Notes: generated from the sequence alone by a model not told the origin. Positions 1 to 7,974 are shown, counted from the first letter of the stretch. The stretch: 64,000 bases of DNA from Planctomycetales bacterium 10988 (GCA_009664345.1 CP043547.1:620001-684000); one strand, 5' to 3'. Numbers and translations: made by a program.

Positions 1-592
<592 letters not shown>

Positions 593-708: not shown

Positions 709-2233
709 ATGCCCCGAACCTTCAAACTCACTTGGCAACCAGGCAGCTCCGGTCGTAGTGGCCGCTGGCGAAAGAGATACAAAAGAAAGGTGTATTACTT
801 TGATGGTGGAAATGGGAAGTCCGATCGAGCCGCCTACAATGTAGCCCTTGAAGCTTGGGTTATCTTAAAAGCTAAAATTGACCAAGCGACGCCCCGTCCT
901 CATCAAGTGGACTACGAAAACACCATCCAGGAATGGGAGAAAGTGTTTCAATGGTCAAATCGCCATAGAGACATCAGAACTGCAGAAGAGGCTTATAAAA
1001 AATTAGAAACCTTGAAGAAGCGACTGGAGGCTCCTTCACTCAAGCCTCTGCGGAGAGAAGACCGGTTTACTTCTCGTTTTGAGCTTCCGGTGATTGAGTT
1101 GCCTGACAATCTCACGAGTGCCGCATCGAGAATTGCCCTCGAACAGGTTCAATTCGGCTCAAGCCCTAAATTGACAAAAGAAAGAGCAACTGAGATTTTG
1201 CAACTATTGGATGGAAGTCCTGAGAGAATAGCCGGTGAAGTGTGGGCAGATCGTCTCCGCTCAGAAGAACATCGAAAAATTAGTTCCAATGATACACTCT
1301 ACTCCTATGTAGAAGAATACATTCAGCACAAGGAGCAACAATATCAGACTGATGAGTTAACCTCGAATCGTCTCTATGCAATCCAGCTACACCTTTCTTA
1401 TTTCCGAGATTGGCGTGGCAAAGATACTGCCATCTCCGAGATCGACGGAAAAACCCTGATGCAATACAAGTCCCGTTTGTTGGATGAAGTGAAAAAGAAA
1501 AACTGGGGACGAACCACGGCGAGACACTATTTAGTCACCGTTAAAGCGTTCGTGCGGTGGCTCTGGCAGATCGAAGCCATCCCCTCGCGTCCTCGATAGT
1601 AAAGGGGAAGCACTTAAAATCGGACCCAACTCGCCTTCCATTGTGGTCTTCACAAAAGAAGAAATAAATACGCTCTTAAAGGCGGCGACTAACCGTACTG
1701 CTCTCTATCTTTTACTGATGTTAAATTGTGGAATGACACAAAAGGATATCTCAGACCTTAAAGTGGAGGAGGTAGATTGGAACCAAGGTCGAATCACACG
1801 CAAAAGGTCCAAAACTTCACATCATGAAAATGTTCCCACGGTGAACTATCTATTATGGCCAGAGACGTTTCAACTTCTCAAGCAAGAACGAAGTAACAAG
1901 CCAAAAGGTCCAGCACTTTTAAATAGTAATGGAACAACTTTATGTATAGAAACGATTACTTCAAATGGGAAATACAAAAAATCTGACAATATAAAAAACG
2001 CCTATGACCGCTTGCGAAAGAAGGTAAGCATTACCAAACCCCTTAAATCTTTAAAAAAGACCTCCGCAACGCTTCTGCGAGGAAATGAAAATTTTCAAGG
2101 AGTAAAAGGATTATTTCTCGGTCATGCACCGCAAAGTATGTCAGAGAAACATTACACCCAAGCACCAGAGAGGCTACTCGATAAAGGGCTCGAATGGCTA
2201 CGAACTTACTATGATCTTGCGTGTATTGATTAA
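709..2233 (+). pseudogene. Tyrosine recombinase/phage-type integrase, frameshifted
   Basis: The first frame (709-1599, 296 residues) holds the N-terminal arm- and core-binding region. It begins at ATG 709 behind GGGAGAAAC and stops at TAG 1597. The second frame (open from about 1585 to 2233) holds the catalytic domain, with LNCGMTQKDISDL, RITRKRSKT and FLGHAPQSMSEKHYT; the last supplies the His and the nucleophilic Tyr. Removing one C from the CCCC run at 1581-1584 joins the two into one protein of about 507 residues. The usual catalytic Arg I and Arg II positions read Gln/Lys ('GMTQKD', 'LKKTSATLL'), so the enzyme may be atypical even when repaired. It sits beside the tRNA-Pro fragment, as expected for an element integrase. 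The break could be a real mutation or a homopolymer sequencing error. Confidence 0.8.
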
Positions 2234-2301: not shown

Positions 2302-5300
2302 TTGAGGTTGTTGAAAGTGAGTGACCAGTTCGTGAAGCTTGATCGGAGATTTGCACAATATTCAGATGAGATCCTGTCAGAAAATTTTCTTCTTCAAAGC
2401 TATTCGAATGGTTTCTATCCTCAATCAAACCTTACCTGGGATGATTTGCTTCAGAATCGTATTACAGTAGTTCTGGGAGAACCTGGCACAGGAAAAACGA
2501 CAGAATTCCGAAGTATGGTGGACTTTCTCAAGAAAGAAAAGAATTTTGCTTTTTTTATACGACTTGATAGTCTTATCAATAAAGAACTCCAATCTGTACT
2601 TACTGAAGATGATACACAACTTTTTAATCATTGGCTTCGTTCTAATCATACCGCCACATTCTTTCTCGATTCGATTGATGAATCCAAACTTCTTCGACAG
2701 AGCGATTTTGAAGAAGCTTTGTTAAACTTCAGAAATGGCGTTACCTCATTAGGACTTCAACGTTCCCGGATAATTTTGAGTTCTCGTGTAAGTGAATGGA
2801 AAGCAAAGACTGATAAGGATCGTGTTCTTCAATCCCTTAATATTCCTCTGAAAGATCCGAATGGAACTCCAGAAGGAAATGAATTTCAGGTCGTTCATTT
2901 ATTGCCACTCGACCAGGAGATGATCAAACGACTATTAATTGGAAAAGGCTTTCATGACGTTACTCAAATCATAGAAACCTTTGATAAATGCTTTCTATGG
3001 AAATTTGCGCGTCGTCCAGTCGACGCACTCCGATATGCCAACTCAATTTCAAAGAAGAAAGATTTCAATAACCTAACGAAATTAATAGAGTTTGATATTC
3101 AGGAGCGGCTCCGTGAAACTTCAGAGCGGGAACAAAACGATCCACTTAGCACCAAGCAAGTCATAGAAGGTGCCGAAACTCTCGCCGCTGCCGGAGTGTT
3201 AACCCGACGTGCATCGATTCTTGTTCGGGATGTAGATTCAGAAATCTCTGAGACATCCTTCGACCCAGGGAAATGCCTTCCGAAAAGCTGGGAACCAAAT
3301 CATGTACGCTCTTTGCTGGGAAGGGCTCTCTTTGATCCTGCCTCCAGGGGGGTAATTCGCTTTCATGATCCTCGAGTTCGAGATTTTCTTGCTGCCAAGT
3401 GGTTACAAAATCGGGTGAAACAAGGGTGTCCGCTGACAAGAGTGAAGCATCTCCTATTTACAGAGCTTCCTAACGGGCTTGTAATTCGAGAAGGAATGCA
3501 ATCCGTGATTGCTTGGATCGCATGTGGGACTACACACCTTTCAAAGGAAGCCAGATCCTGGGTGCTAAAAGCCTCTCCAGAACTCTTCTTTTCTCATGGA
3601 GATCCAGGGCTGCTATCTGTTGGATTTCGTAGAAAAATTTTAAAAGCGTATATCGATCGTTACGCCACGAGGCAGCAAACATGGACAAAAACCGAGCTTG
3701 AAAGCTTAGCGAGATTTTCAGATGCTTCACTTGCGGAAGTTTTAAATCAAATAGCAGAAGACCCCACCGTGGATGAAGACTCACGTATCTTGGCAATCTC
3801 AATCGCACGCTACGGCCGGATAGCTGAAGGCATGGAAATGGCTCAGACACTCGCGGTAGATGAAACGCAAAGCCTTTATATTCGCATGGCAGCCGCAGCC
3901 GCCCTGCGAGAAGTGGCTGAGATTGATCGACGTAGGAGTTTCGCACAGTCAGCCGCTAAATTGCCTGATATTCCAGATAAGTTGATCGGACTATTTATTG
4001 CTGCTATTCACCCAGATGTTGTTGGTGCTGACGAAGTAGCATCACTTGTTCAGAAAACAGTCGGCAATGCCGAGGAACTGATGTATCGAGGATCTTGGAT
4101 TTTTGATCATTTTAAAAGAACACTTAATGAGAGCCAGGCAATCGATCTTCTCACTGAGCTTTTACCCTTGGCTGTTACGCCGCCGTTAGTAACCCTGAAC
4201 AATAAAGATACCCATCTTTCGACAAAATATAAATGGGTTGGTCAGTGGTTCCCAGAGTTACTCAACAAAGCAATTAAAAAGAAAGGCCTCTCAGATTCAG
4301 ATGCTAAGACAATTGCCCGTGCATGGGCTTGGCTCGAAGAGCTTGGTGTTTGCACGAATAGATATGTCTCCCTCCCGGATGAGTTTGAAATCGAATCTCG
4401 TCAGCAGACTGTGGTAAGACGTCAGTACTTCTGGCTCAAATACCATGAATACAAGGAGGCTCAGACAAGAGAACTTTTCTCTCCTTCTCAATTTTTAGGC
4501 TTCCGAGGTTATGGTGGCTTCGACGTGACTTTGGAGGATTTGACTTGGCTTCTTAAAGATGTTTCAGAGCAAAAAGAATTCTCTAAACAAAAAATCGCTT
4601 TACTCACTTGCATTGACATCTATCTAAAGTCTGGTAAATCGCGTTCCACTCTAAATCGTATTAAACAAGCTGTTGCTCAAAGTGATCCGTTAAAAGAGCT
4701 TCTTCGGGTAGAAATACGTCAATCTAGGTATTCATATGTGAAGAGAATCTGGATTGAAGTTATTCGATATAAATTTGGAAATAAGTTTTGGTGGGAAGAG
4801 CAACGGTTGAAACTTAAGCATTGGAAGAGGAAAAAGAGATTCCAAATCCATATTTTTAGGAATTTAAGTAACCTTCGAAAAGGCCGAAGTGTAGGGATGT
4901 TGGCAAGCTTAGTTGATGAGGCTGTCGGTGAGAATGGAGGCTTCCAGATCGCTCCCAATACGTGGGATGAACTTCGACGCAAACGAGGTACATGGATAAC
5001 AAAGGCAGTGAGTACTGGATGCAGGCAAGTATGGAATGAATATACACCTATGCTGCCATGTGAGAAGCAATTTCCCAAGACGACAACTGCGGGAGATCAT
5101 GCGGGATTAGCTGGTCTCTCTACCGGAGTTCATTCAGGTGAAATCGACTTGTCAAAATTGTCCCAGATCGAAATCGAGAAAGCAGTACGCTATGCAATTG
5201 TCGAATTAAACGGATTCCCTAATTGGTTTGAAAAACTTGTGGCTCTGCATCCCGAAATTGTACGAAGGGTACTACTCAATGCTATCGAAGGTGAATGGAA

Positions 5301-6579
5301 TTGGCCAAGTGAACACGCGATCTGTGGGGTTCTGCAAAAAGTCCGTTGGAGTGATGAATCGATTCGCAATCTACTGACCAAAAGCCTTGTTGATCGTCTG
5401 GACAAATCTTTCCCCAAAAAATACGAAATATTGCAAACCGTATTGCAATGTTTAGTAGACGCATCAGATGAAGTACTTCGTGAGCTTTCTATAACCTGCT
5501 CCAAGGCGTTAGACGCTTGTAATCAAATAGACCCTTCTTTCACCGACTTATTTGTTATAGAAATTCAACTCAATCCTGAGAAAGGGATATCCCGGCTAGA
5601 AACATTTTCATCAAGTTGCAATCAAGACGTTGATGCGGCTGTGGAGATCATTGCCACCTTAAGCGGGGAGAGCATCGATTCACGTACAAGACTCTTTCAA
5701 CCTTCACCCCCATTCTCTGCCCCCCAGTTAAAGAAGCTTCTACTGGTTTGCAACCGTCTTGTCAAACCTTCCGACGACCTCGAAAGAACTGGTCCCTATT
5801 CGTCAACTCCGCGAGACTACGCTCAGCGATATCGTGATTCGTTGATACACCAAATCGCAGACGTTGAGAAAGATAGGAACCTCTCCGTTCTGCGTTCGCT
5901 CCTACATGAAACCGAACTGGAACACCATAAAGATTACATCTTGGAAAGGATTTCCAGGAGAATGCGGAGTGATAATCGTCTGGGCATCTGGACTGAAGAA
6001 AACATTGTAGATTTCGCGGAAAATTTCGAAAAAGACCCAAGAACGTGTGAAGATTTATACTTGATTCTGTGTGATCGATTGAACGACATAAAGTACCAAG
6101 TTGAGCTATCAGACAACAGCATCCGTGACGAAGTTCGGCTAGACCACGACGAGAAAGCGTTATGTCGCTGGATTGCCCGCAAACTACATGACCAAGCACG
6201 CGGAAGATACATTGCCCCACTTGAAGTTGAAATCGACCAAGGAAAACGGCCTGACATCCGCCCAGAAAATGCTGATATTCCGCCTGTTCCATTTGAAGTG
6301 AAGTGGGCAGAAAGATGGTCTTATAACCAGTTAGTCGAGAGCTTAAACAAGCAGCTTGTTGGTCAATACCTTCGAGCTCATGAAAACCGTTATGGCATCT
6401 TTCTACTGGGTTACATTGACGAAGATGAGAAAAAACGATGGTATGATAAAGGCAGCTCTCGTTTATGCTTCAGGAAGCTCATTGAGAATCTTCAATCAAA
6501 AGCAAATCAACTTGTGGAACAGAATCCCAATATTTATGCAATCAAAGTCATCGGTATTGACTTCCGACCTCCATCTTAA
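2302..6579 (+). CDS. Large STAND/NACHT-like NTPase with C-terminal PD-(D/E)XK nuclease motif, putative defence protein
   Basis: The protein has 1425 residues. Near the N-terminus lie a Walker A motif (GEPGTGKT, residues 59-66) and a Walker B motif (FFLDSIDE, about 120-127). They are followed by an ARM/HEAT-like helical middle of roughly 900 residues with no membrane segments. Near the C-terminus RPDI (Asp 1318), FEVKW (Glu 1332, Lys 1334) and a following helix QLVGQYL fit a PD-(D/E)XK nuclease. NTPase plus repeat sensor plus nuclease is the logic of STAND/NACHT/Avs-type antiphage proteins, although most known Avs proteins carry the nuclease at the N-terminus. The gene lies 68 bp after the integrase and is probably element cargo. 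Start TTG 2302 has a GGAG 12 bp upstream; GTG 2317 is an alternative. Defence function is inferred; no family name is assigned. Confidence 0.72.
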   Translation: MRLLKVSDQFVKLDRRFAQYSDEILSENFLLQSYSNGFYPQSNLTWDDLLQNRITVVLGEPGTGKTTEFRSMVDFLKKEKNFAFFIRLDSLINKELQSVLTEDDTQLFNHWLRSNHTATFFLDSIDESKLLRQSDFEEALLNFRNGVTSLGLQRSRIILSSRVSEWKAKTDKDRVLQSLNIPLKDPNGTPEGNEFQVVHLLPLDQEMIKRLLIGKGFHDVTQIIETFDKCFLWKFARRPVDALRYANSISKKKDFNNLTKLIEFDIQERLRETSEREQNDPLSTKQVIEGAETLAAAGVLTRRASILVRDVDSEISETSFDPGKCLPKSWEPNHVRSLLGRALFDPASRGVIRFHDPRVRDFLAAKWLQNRVKQGCPLTRVKHLLFTELPNGLVIREGMQSVIAWIACGTTHLSKEARSWVLKASPELFFSHGDPGLLSVGFRRKILKAYIDRYATRQQTWTKTELESLARFSDASLAEVLNQIAEDPTVDEDSRILAISIARYGRIAEGMEMAQTLAVDETQSLYIRMAAAAALREVAEIDRRRSFAQSAAKLPDIPDKLIGLFIAAIHPDVVGADEVASLVQKTVGNAEELMYRGSWIFDHFKRTLNESQAIDLLTELLPLAVTPPLVTLNNKDTHLSTKYKWVGQWFPELLNKAIKKKGLSDSDAKTIARAWAWLEELGVCTNRYVSLPDEFEIESRQQTVVRRQYFWLKYHEYKEAQTRELFSPSQFLGFRGYGGFDVTLEDLTWLLKDVSEQKEFSKQKIALLTCIDIYLKSGKSRSTLNRIKQAVAQSDPLKELLRVEIRQSRYSYVKRIWIEVIRYKFGNKFWWEEQRLKLKHWKRKKRFQIHIFRNLSNLRKGRSVGMLASLVDEAVGENGGFQIAPNTWDELRRKRGTWITKAVSTGCRQVWNEYTPMLPCEKQFPKTTTAGDHAGLAGLSTGVHSGEIDLSKLSQIEIEKAVRYAIVELNGFPNWFEKLVALHPEIVRRVLLNAIEGEWNWPSEHAICGVLQKVRWSDESIRNLLTKSLVDRLDKSFPKKYEILQTVLQCLVDASDEVLRELSITCSKALDACNQIDPSFTDLFVIEIQLNPEKGISRLETFSSSCNQDVDAAVEIIATLSGESIDSRTRLFQPSPPFSAPQLKKLLLVCNRLVKPSDDLERTGPYSSTPRDYAQRYRDSLIHQIADVEKDRNLSVLRSLLHETELEHHKDYILERISRRMRSDNRLGIWTEENIVDFAENFEKDPRTCEDLYLILCDRLNDIKYQVELSDNSIRDEVRLDHDEKALCRWIARKLHDQARGRYIAPLEVEIDQGKRPDIRPENADIPPVPFEVKWAERWSYNQLVESLNKQLVGQYLRAHENRYGIFLLGYIDEDEKKRWYDKGSSRLCFRKLIENLQSKANQLVEQNPNIYAIKVIGIDFRPPS

Positions 6580-6620: not shown

Positions 6621-7076
6621 TTAAATCGGGTGGTTGCCGGTTGTTGAGAGGGTTTCTTCCTCCCCGGAATCGGTACGCAAGGTAAGGTAATAGAGGAGAT
6701 CGGGGTGGGTCTCGAAAGTCTTGACGACGGGTTGATAGAGCGGTTGGGACTCTTCGTGGGTGCTCGATTCGTGGCGAGTTAACACCAGGTCGCCAGGCTG
6801 GATGTCCTCGATGTTTTTCAGACCATCGAGGGTGTGAACCTTCGTCCCGGCAGGGAAACAGGCCCAAATGCCTCGGAGGACTCGCAGCCGCTCGGCGAAT
6901 TTGTGAAGTGCTTGAGAGACATCGGCCGCATCATCGAAGAAGCGGATTCCGGTCATCTCCGTCAAGTCGAAGAGCCACTTGGTGACTTTCACCGAGCGGG
7001 CCGCGGCATTGGCTACCGACGCCGTCCCCGCGGTGGCATACGTTACCGCGGCATTGACGGCGGCTTCATAGAGGAA
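6621..7076 (-). pseudogene. Orphan pretoxin-Hint module fragment
   Basis: Read leftward, the fragment begins without a start codon at LYEAAVNAAVTYATAG. It continues through KVTKWL, a Hint N-terminus CFPAGTKVHTLDGLKNIED, and stops just after STTGNHPI. It is a diverged copy of residues of the giant toxin upstream (the CFPAGTKV region near 9238): the DNA at 6691-6852 matches 9072-9240 at roughly 90 percent by eye. The Hint C-terminal half with the closing His-Asn and any toxin domain are missing. GTG 6992 could start a 123-residue product. Displaced toxin cassettes behind the immunity gene are usual at polymorphic-toxin loci and act as recombination donors; this one appears decayed. Confidence 0.78.
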
Positions 7077-7092: not shown

Positions 7093-7974
7093 TTACTTCA
7101 TCGTGCGGTTACTTTCCGAAAAATCAAACTCACCCCGCACCAACCGCATGGGAAGATATTCAGAATCGATCTCAAATCGCATTCCCCGATTGTAAGCGAT
7201 GCCAGCTAAAGCAATGAGTGGGAATGAAAGGAAAGCATCCGAAGAGACACTTTCTGCATTCTCGATATTCCAGTAATCATGATGTGCTTCAAGGGCTTGG
7301 TAGAGCACGTCCTCAAACTCTTGTTCTTCGCCTCGGATTAATAAAGCAAGTAGATGAACGTGAAAAACATCGAAAGCCAAAATGAAGTCCGTTTCAAAAC
7401 CCTGATTGAGCCGAGGATCGGTTGCGTGCTGTGCTTCGATCAACTTCTTGCCAACCTTGGAATCGTTCCTCGCGAATGCCTGAAAAGCAGCGACCTTTTT
7501 TTCTAGATGGGGTGGATGTCGGACGGCTGCTTCAGGTCGAAGAAGGTCTAAATTCATGCGAGTCAATTGAGCAAGCCCACGGGTCCTTCGGCAAATCGCG
7601 TTCAGAAATAAAGCATTCATCCAAGTCGAAAGATTTGTCAGATTATTTCTTTTAAACTTTGAAGTCTGAAATTGAATTGGTTGATCGCCTAAAAGAAGTT
7701 TTTTGTGATCGCCATGGACCAAAGCCAAATCTGCCACCATCGATTCCGCGGAAAGAAATAAACACTCATCCTGAATTCCTGTAAGCTCCGGATAAAAATA
7801 AGAGATACGACAAGCTAAATTGCAGCCCTCTCCATAGATATCGCTGAGGTACTTATAACTATTTTCAGATGGTTCTAATGCGTTTTCTTTATATTCAAGA
7901 ACCAATTCCCAATCTTCAATAATCTCATCTTTGGAAAACTTAAAACCTCGAACGGGTCGGATAATACTTCTCAT
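7093..7974 (-). CDS. Probable immunity protein, Imm49-like
   Basis: This 293-residue, mainly alpha-helical cytosolic protein has no signal peptide. It starts 22 bp after the stop codon of the giant toxin gene and is read in the same direction, the standard position for a cognate immunity gene. The C-terminal signature (FLSFPLIALAGIAYNRG followed by IDSEYLP) resembles Imm49 immunity proteins, which end in a similar 'alpha-helix, Asp/Glu-x-x-YLP' segment. It would bind and neutralise the C-terminal nuclease of the neighbour in kin cells. Position is strong evidence for immunity; the Imm49 name rests on motif recall and is less certain. Confidence 0.68.
   Translation of the reverse strand: MRSIIRPVRGFKFSKDEIIEDWELVLEYKENALEPSENSYKYLSDIYGEGCNLACRISYFYPELTGIQDECLFLSAESMVADLALVHGDHKKLLLGDQPIQFQTSKFKRNNLTNLSTWMNALFLNAICRRTRGLAQLTRMNLDLLRPEAAVRHPPHLEKKVAAFQAFARNDSKVGKKLIEAQHATDPRLNQGFETDFILAFDVFHVHLLALLIRGEEQEFEDVLYQALEAHHDYWNIENAESVSSDAFLSFPLIALAGIAYNRGMRFEIDSEYLPMRLVRGEFDFSESNRTMK

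What the first reader, a model, noticed from the sequence alone, without database searches (positions are those of the whole stretch)
2302..6579. NTPase with C-terminal nuclease: candidate unclassified antiphage protein
A single 1425-residue gene directly behind an integrase has an N-terminal P-loop (GEPGTGKT, LDSIDE), a ~900-residue helical repeat middle and a C-terminal Asp...Glu-x-Lys nuclease motif. This reverses the usual Avs domain order (nuclease first). It lacks any partner gene, so it would be a stand-alone sensor and effector.
Basis: partly seen in the sequence, partly recalled or inferred. Interest (0 to 1): 0.65.

Follow-up and report, generated by a model that had tools for sequence, protein, structure and literature searches.

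The report
Divergent HyoA-like NACHT–nuclease antiphage protein
This is one large bacterial immune-receptor-like protein, related to human inflammasome proteins, that carries its DNA-cutting part at the tail end; it belongs with an already catalogued antiphage family (HyoA-like), so it is a new distant member rather than a new system.

Summary
An intact 1425-aa ORF (TTG start) lies at 2302-6579(+), 68 bp behind a tyrosine integrase that is frameshifted. AlphaFold2 and fold comparison give a NACHT module (residues ~1-440; NLRC4 Z 17.9), a helical-repeat middle (~441-1240) and a C-terminal PD-(D/E)XK nuclease (~1260-1425; BamHI Z 8.4; D1318, E1332-x-K1334).

It is not unclassified. NCBIfam NF058534, "NACHT domain-containing antiphage protein HyoA", matches end to end (1-1429/1430, 954.9 bits, E 7.8e-287), though below the equivalog cut-off of 1200. 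PADLOC 2023 and Pfam give only weak P-loop/NACHT matches.

Relatives are patchy across many phyla, plasmids and prophage contigs. They keep the Walker and nuclease residues, have no conserved neighbour gene, and in some loci sit beside defence genes (Shedu, Septu, restriction). In two relatives the nuclease alone is replaced by a nucleoside-phosphorylase domain, which points to an exchangeable C-terminal effector.

Best reading: a stand-alone NACHT sensor whose C-terminal nuclease is switched on by phage infection. This is a new member of a known kind. Antiphage activity was not tested here.

The parts
2302..6579 (+). HyoA-like NACHT - helical repeat - PD-(D/E)XK nuclease protein, 1425 aa, TTG start
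   Evidence: ORF; NCBIfam NF058534 full length, 954.9 bits, E 7.8e-287; 95 homologues of more than 1250 aa aligned
2302..3621 (+). NACHT/STAND NTPase module with helical and winged-helix parts, residues ~1-440 (Walker A 59-66, Walker B 120-127, R162, P239; position 356 is His in most relatives, Asp here)
   Evidence: AF2 pLDDT 86.8 for 1-1200; VIA Z 17.9, rmsd 6.0, 388 residues to NLRC4 8fw2_A; conservation
3622..6021 (+). HEAT-like alpha-helical repeat middle, residues ~441-1240, presumed sensor
   Evidence: AF2 almost entirely helical to residue 1200; Foldseek hits to Avs4, CAND1, importins; most divergent part, median identity 17-21% against 29-34% for the flanking domains
6079..6576 (+). 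C-terminal PD-(D/E)XK nuclease, residues ~1260-1425 (E1284, E1308, D1318, E1332-x-K1334, Q1351, Y1356)
   Evidence: AF2 pLDDT 92.3, pTM 0.87; VIA matches to BamHI, BglII, Can2, McrC, FokI, HamA, Avs4 nuclease; residues kept in 92-95 of 96 rows
709..2233 (+). tyrosine integrase, split by a frameshift near 1590 into two ORFs, probably inactive
   Evidence: Pfam PF13102 and PF00589; frame analysis; homologues in single open frames of 536-576 codons
551..590 (+). 40-bp duplicate of the tRNA-Pro(GGG) 3' end next to the integrase, a probable attachment-site scar
   Evidence: identical 40 bp inside the intact tRNA-Pro gene at 5.66 Mb of the same chromosome

Best explanation
It is a stand-alone STAND/NACHT immune receptor of the HyoA-like kind. 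In the resting cell the NACHT module (residues 1-440) holds nucleotide and keeps the protein inactive. The long HEAT-like helical region recognises a phage product or a cell state caused by phage. Binding lets the NACHT module oligomerise, which brings the C-terminal PD-(D/E)XK domains together and switches on DNA cleavage (phage DNA, host DNA or both), stopping phage production, probably by abortive infection. The domain anatomy and the conservation of both active sites are shown here; the modularity of the C-terminal effector is shown by two replacements in relatives. Sensing, oligomerisation, DNA as substrate and abortive infection are inferred from HyoA's curated name and from NLR, Avs and bNACHT mechanisms.
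For: Full-length match to NCBIfam antiphage HyoA and a weaker one to EruA. NACHT fold closest to NLRC4/NLRP3/NOD2, with Avs4 the top Foldseek hit. PD-(D/E)XK fold with catalytic residues kept in 92-95 of 96 rows. Two relatives (L054 Gemmataceae, L088 Myxococcus) keep NACHT and helices (37% and 31% identity to this protein in NACHT) but carry PNP_UDP_1 (E 8.2e-15 and 7.7e-16) instead of the nuclease, as expected for an exchangeable effector. The middle is the fastest-diverging part, as expected for a sensor. Patchy spread: 4 of 196 related genomes including its own, 2 others full length; also plasmids, viral contigs and a tree mixing phyla. Defence neighbours in some homologue loci: Shedu SduA_C beside the close relative L047 and Mrr_cat beside L052; SIR2 plus ATPase, type III restriction and TIR on plasmids; Septu, type III methyltransferase, PD-T4-6 and mad genes. 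No conserved partner gene.
Against: Score is below the HyoA equivalog cut-off (954.9 against 1200) and identity to the nearest homologue found is only 34%, so functional transfer is uncertain. No activity was tested, and the HyoA/EruA source paper was not found in the held library. Only a minority of 130 neighbour proteins hit PADLOC strongly and many neighbours are housekeeping genes, so defence-island association is modest. No solved structure is detectable by sequence. The C-terminal nuclease fold matches have only middling Z (best 8.6).
Confidence: 0.8

Rival explanations
1. It defends chiefly against plasmids or conjugative elements, or serves one mobile element against another, with the same NACHT-to-nuclease switch.
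For: Many homologues lie on plasmids, 30 of 60 records predicted conjugative, in viral contigs and by integrases; this copy is behind a (broken) integrase and a tRNA-Pro scar.
Against: The curated family name is antiphage. Defence genes travel on mobile elements anyway, so location does not name the target.
Confidence: 0.12
2. It is a decayed, non-functional remnant in a mobile-element graveyard.
For: The neighbouring tyrosine integrase is frameshifted, the serine recombinase upstream looks split, and a related NACHT fragment of 485 aa lies elsewhere in the genome.
Against: The 1425-codon frame is intact and the family-wide NTPase and nuclease motif residues are present.
Confidence: 0.06
3. 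It is a housekeeping DNA repair or chromosome protein.
For: Helical repeats plus a nuclease also occur in repair proteins (general knowledge); weak Foldseek rows to FANCI/FANCD2 and ATM.
Against: No match in 192 of 196 related genomes; mobile, patchy spread; NACHT fold; effector swaps to PNP_UDP_1.
Confidence: 0.02

Closest known systems
HyoA (NCBIfam NF058534, NACHT domain-containing antiphage protein)
   Same: Aligns over model positions 1-1429 of 1430; proteins that pass the HyoA cut-off share its length, N-terminal NACHT and C-terminal nuclease motif
   Different: 954.9 bits, below the equivalog cut-off of 1200; lies in a deep sub-clade whose members straddle that cut-off (L048 1212.9 and L052 1206.6 above; L045, L046, L047, L049, L061 below)
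EruA (NCBIfam NF058535, NACHT domain-containing antiphage protein)
   Same: Homologous over most of the length, residues 47-1368
   Different: Far weaker, 179.2 bits against a cut-off of 1000
Avs4 (AVAST; PDB 8dgf)
   Same: STAND NTPase, long helical part and PD-(D/E)XK nuclease in one chain; top Foldseek hit E 5.6e-8, VIA Z 9.2 over 313 residues
   Different: Avs4's nuclease is N-terminal: this protein's nuclease aligns with Avs4 residues 1-154 and its NTPase with 195-524. No significant sequence match in the PDB
bNACHT proteins, e.g. bNACHT25/32 (PMC12169576)
   Same: NACHT module and PD-(D/E)XK DNase effector
   Different: They have effector - NACHT - sensor order with an N-terminal effector (PMC12169576); here it is NACHT - helices - effector
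Inflammasome NLRs (NLRC4, NLRP3, NOD2)
   Same: NACHT module fold, Z 12-18
   Different: They use leucine-rich repeats and N-terminal adaptor domains (general knowledge); no nuclease

Membership tests
HyoA equivalog (NF058534) | full-length match to the model | tested here: met
   residues 13-1423 to positions 1-1429 of 1430, E 7.8e-287
HyoA equivalog (NF058534) | score at or above the curated cut-off of 1200 bits | tested here: not met
   954.9 bits; so a HyoA-like relative, not certified as HyoA
HyoA equivalog (NF058534) | antiphage activity | not testable with these tools
   needs plaque assays
EruA equivalog (NF058535) | score at or above the curated cut-off of 1000 bits | tested here: not met
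   179.2 bits
NACHT/STAND NTPases | Walker A and B with NACHT fold including winged helix | tested here: met
NACHT/STAND NTPases | Pfam NACHT model (PF05729) at gathering score | tested here: inconclusive
   16.4 bits against 26.7: sub-threshold by sequence, while the fold match is strong
PD-(D/E)XK nuclease superfamily | D...(E)xK motif on the restriction-endonuclease-like fold | tested here: met
   D1318, E1332, K1334, Q1351 conserved; fold
PD-(D/E)XK nuclease superfamily | nuclease activity | not testable with these tools
   needs biochemistry
Avs / AVAST | N-terminal effector followed by STAND NTPase and C-terminal sensor | tested here: not met
   the nuclease is C-terminal
bNACHT (PMC12169576) | N-terminal effector, central NACHT, C-terminal sensor | tested here: not met
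   NACHT starts at the N-terminus, nuclease at the C-terminus
PADLOC 2023 defence systems | convincing profile match | tested here: not met
   only short P-loop matches, best E 3e-5

The most novel reading that the evidence does not exclude
The HyoA-like proteins are a broad class of STAND immune receptors with reversed polarity: NACHT switch first, helical sensor in the middle, and an exchangeable effector at the C-terminus (nuclease in most, nucleoside phosphorylase in some). The sensor would lie between switch and effector and activation would have to travel through the repeat. The window protein belongs to a deep, untested sub-clade of it.
Probability: 0.5. Interest if true: 0.5.

Novelty: new member of a known kind. 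Interest (0 to 1): 0.35.

Why it matters
The family is already catalogued as antiphage, so one more member is modest news. What adds value is that the described STAND/bNACHT architecture puts the effector at the N-terminus (PMC12169576), while here it is at the C-terminus and is swapped for a phosphorylase-type domain in two relatives. That makes it testable how a NACHT switch activates an effector about 800 residues away. It also extends the family to a divergent planctomycete branch.

Tried and rejected
Pfam, PADLOC and the PDB by sequence gave no classification. The first viral-contig scan with the single protein found nothing; the alignment found 4 loci. Paper searches for HyoA and EruA found only an unrelated AIEC regulator also called EruA and an unrelated mouse paper; the main text of DefensePredictor (PMC13092281) names neither. 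A conserved partner gene was sought by clustering 908 neighbours of 96 loci: the largest cluster covers 8 loci and is rarely adjacent. Foldseek alone on the nuclease model was weak (best E 8.6e-3); VIA realignment of the same hits gave the clear restriction-endonuclease series. A housekeeping role was rejected on patchy occurrence.

Full report
Observation. The ORF at 2302-6579(+) is intact, 1425 codons, with a TTG start. The window is bases 620001-684000 of a 6.65-Mb single-contig genome. A genome of the same order, G011, holds a full-length homologue that is also found as a Pirellula contig (L047), so the window is of planctomycete kinship.

Identity. NCBIfam NF058534, 'NACHT domain-containing antiphage protein HyoA', matches residues 13-1423 to positions 1-1429 of 1430 with 954.9 bits (E 7.8e-287). 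The curated equivalog cut-off is 1200 bits, so the match is below it. EruA (NF058535) matches with 179.2 bits. Pfam gives only sub-threshold P-loop and NACHT matches and PADLOC 2023 only P-loop scraps. In a tree of 92 homologues the protein sits in a strongly supported 16-row clade (SH-aLRT 100) of Verrucomicrobiota, Planctomycetota, Pseudomonadota and others. Within that clade some members pass the HyoA cut-off (L048 1212.9, L052 1206.6) and others do not (L045 1143.7, L046 1110.5, L047 1122.1, L049 1086.2, L061 1039.4), so the cut-off is not a natural border there. I therefore call it HyoA-like, not HyoA.

Structure. AF2 of residues 1-1200 (56-row alignment) has mean pLDDT 86.8. Its first ~500 residues align to NLRC4 with Z 17.9, rmsd 6.0, 388 residues, followed by other NLRC4, NLRP3 and NOD2 chains. 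The Foldseek top hit is Avs4 bound to portal (E 5.6e-8), then NLRC4 and HEAT-repeat proteins; TM-scores are low, as expected for a long flexible solenoid. AF2 of residues 1225-1425 (58 rows) has pLDDT 92.3 and pTM 0.87. Foldseek alone was weak, but VIA alignment lists BamHI, BglII, Can2, McrC, FokI, HamA and the Avs4 N-terminal nuclease region, with Z from about 5 to 8.6. Z values near 8 are modest on their own. The agreement of fold family, motif order (E1284, E1308, D1318, E1332-x-K1334, Q1351, Y1356) and conservation in 92-95 of 96 sequences makes the assignment firm.

Modularity. L054 (Gemmataceae) and L088 (Myxococcus) keep NACHT and helical region but end in a PNP_UDP_1 phosphorylase/nucleosidase domain (E 8.2e-15 and 7.7e-16). 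HyoA homology in L054 stops at model position 1246. Between L047 and L054 identity is 52%, 32% and 43% over NACHT and the two helical halves and 27% in the columns of the nuclease, where the two are not homologous. Across the set the helical middle is the most divergent part (median identity 17-21% to the window protein, against 29% for NACHT and 34% for nuclease). This fits a switch - sensor - effector order. That the middle is the sensor is inference.

Distribution and context. A match was found in 4 of 196 related genomes counting its own, in 60 plasmid records, most of them partial matches, in 4 viral contigs, and in 2 Acinetobacter phage-labelled records whose surroundings look chromosomal. 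In genome contigs, 322 of 389 candidate stretches encode a relative and the best 80 were kept. Clustering 908 neighbours of 96 loci found no recurring adjacent family, which supports a single-gene system. Defence genes occur beside some homologues: Shedu by L047 and Mrr_cat by L052; SIR2 plus ATPase, type III restriction and TIR on plasmids; Septu, type III methyltransferase, PD-T4-6 and mad genes. Many neighbours are housekeeping genes, so this is supportive rather than strong, and no background rate was measured.

Local setting. The integrase 709-2233 is split by a frameshift near 1590, while homologues lie in single open frames of 536-576 codons. A 40-bp exact copy of the 3' end of tRNA-Pro(GGG) lies at 551-590; the intact tRNA gene is 5 Mb away. 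Upstream lie pieces of a serine recombinase and transposase-like ORFs (named from the sequence, not by a profile search). On the other side, in opposite orientation, are an Imm49 immunity gene and a 7651-aa surface-toxin-like ORF.

Mechanism and limits. Shown: anatomy, conserved active sites, exchangeable C-terminal domain, lack of a partner, patchy and mobile distribution. Inferred: phage sensing, NACHT oligomerisation, DNA cleavage and abortive infection, from the curated family name and from Avs, bNACHT and NLR precedents (PMC12169576). The experimental basis of the HyoA name could not be read, since its paper was not found in the held library.

Verdict. New member of a known kind, interest 0.35.

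Noticed in passing
window 7997-30952 (-) and 7093-7974 (-): A 7651-aa repeat-rich surface protein ORF with a Hint-like region near its C-terminus, followed by an Imm49 immunity gene (PF15575, E 7.2e-34): looks like a giant polymorphic toxin and immunity pair.
   Followed up: partly
window 6621-6992 (-): Short orphan ORF with a pretoxin HINT domain (PF07591) closely resembling the Hint region of the giant ORF, probably a leftover toxin-tip cassette between the HyoA-like gene and Imm49.
   Followed up: partly
window 551-590: 40-bp exact copy of the 3' end of tRNA-Pro(GGG), whose intact gene lies at about 5.66 Mb; the end of the upstream recombinase reading frame reads into it.
   Followed up: partly
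L030:7384-8838 (genome 381.4-382.8 kb): A 485-aa NACHT fragment closest to EruA (140.8 bits), cut short next to transposase-like ORFs; a second, truncated NACHT protein in the same genome.
   Followed up: partly
L054:9926-14416 and L088:9875-14428: HyoA-like proteins whose C-terminal nuclease is replaced by a PNP_UDP_1 phosphorylase/nucleosidase domain.
   Followed up: yes
L126:8010-11933 (viral contig): HyoA-like protein of about 1308 aa lacking the nuclease motifs, with an unidentified C-terminus.
   Followed up: no
L134:12581-14568 (genome about 618.6-620.6 kb): Serine-recombinase-like gene that appears split into two overlapping ORFs, just upstream of the window's integrase.
   Followed up: no
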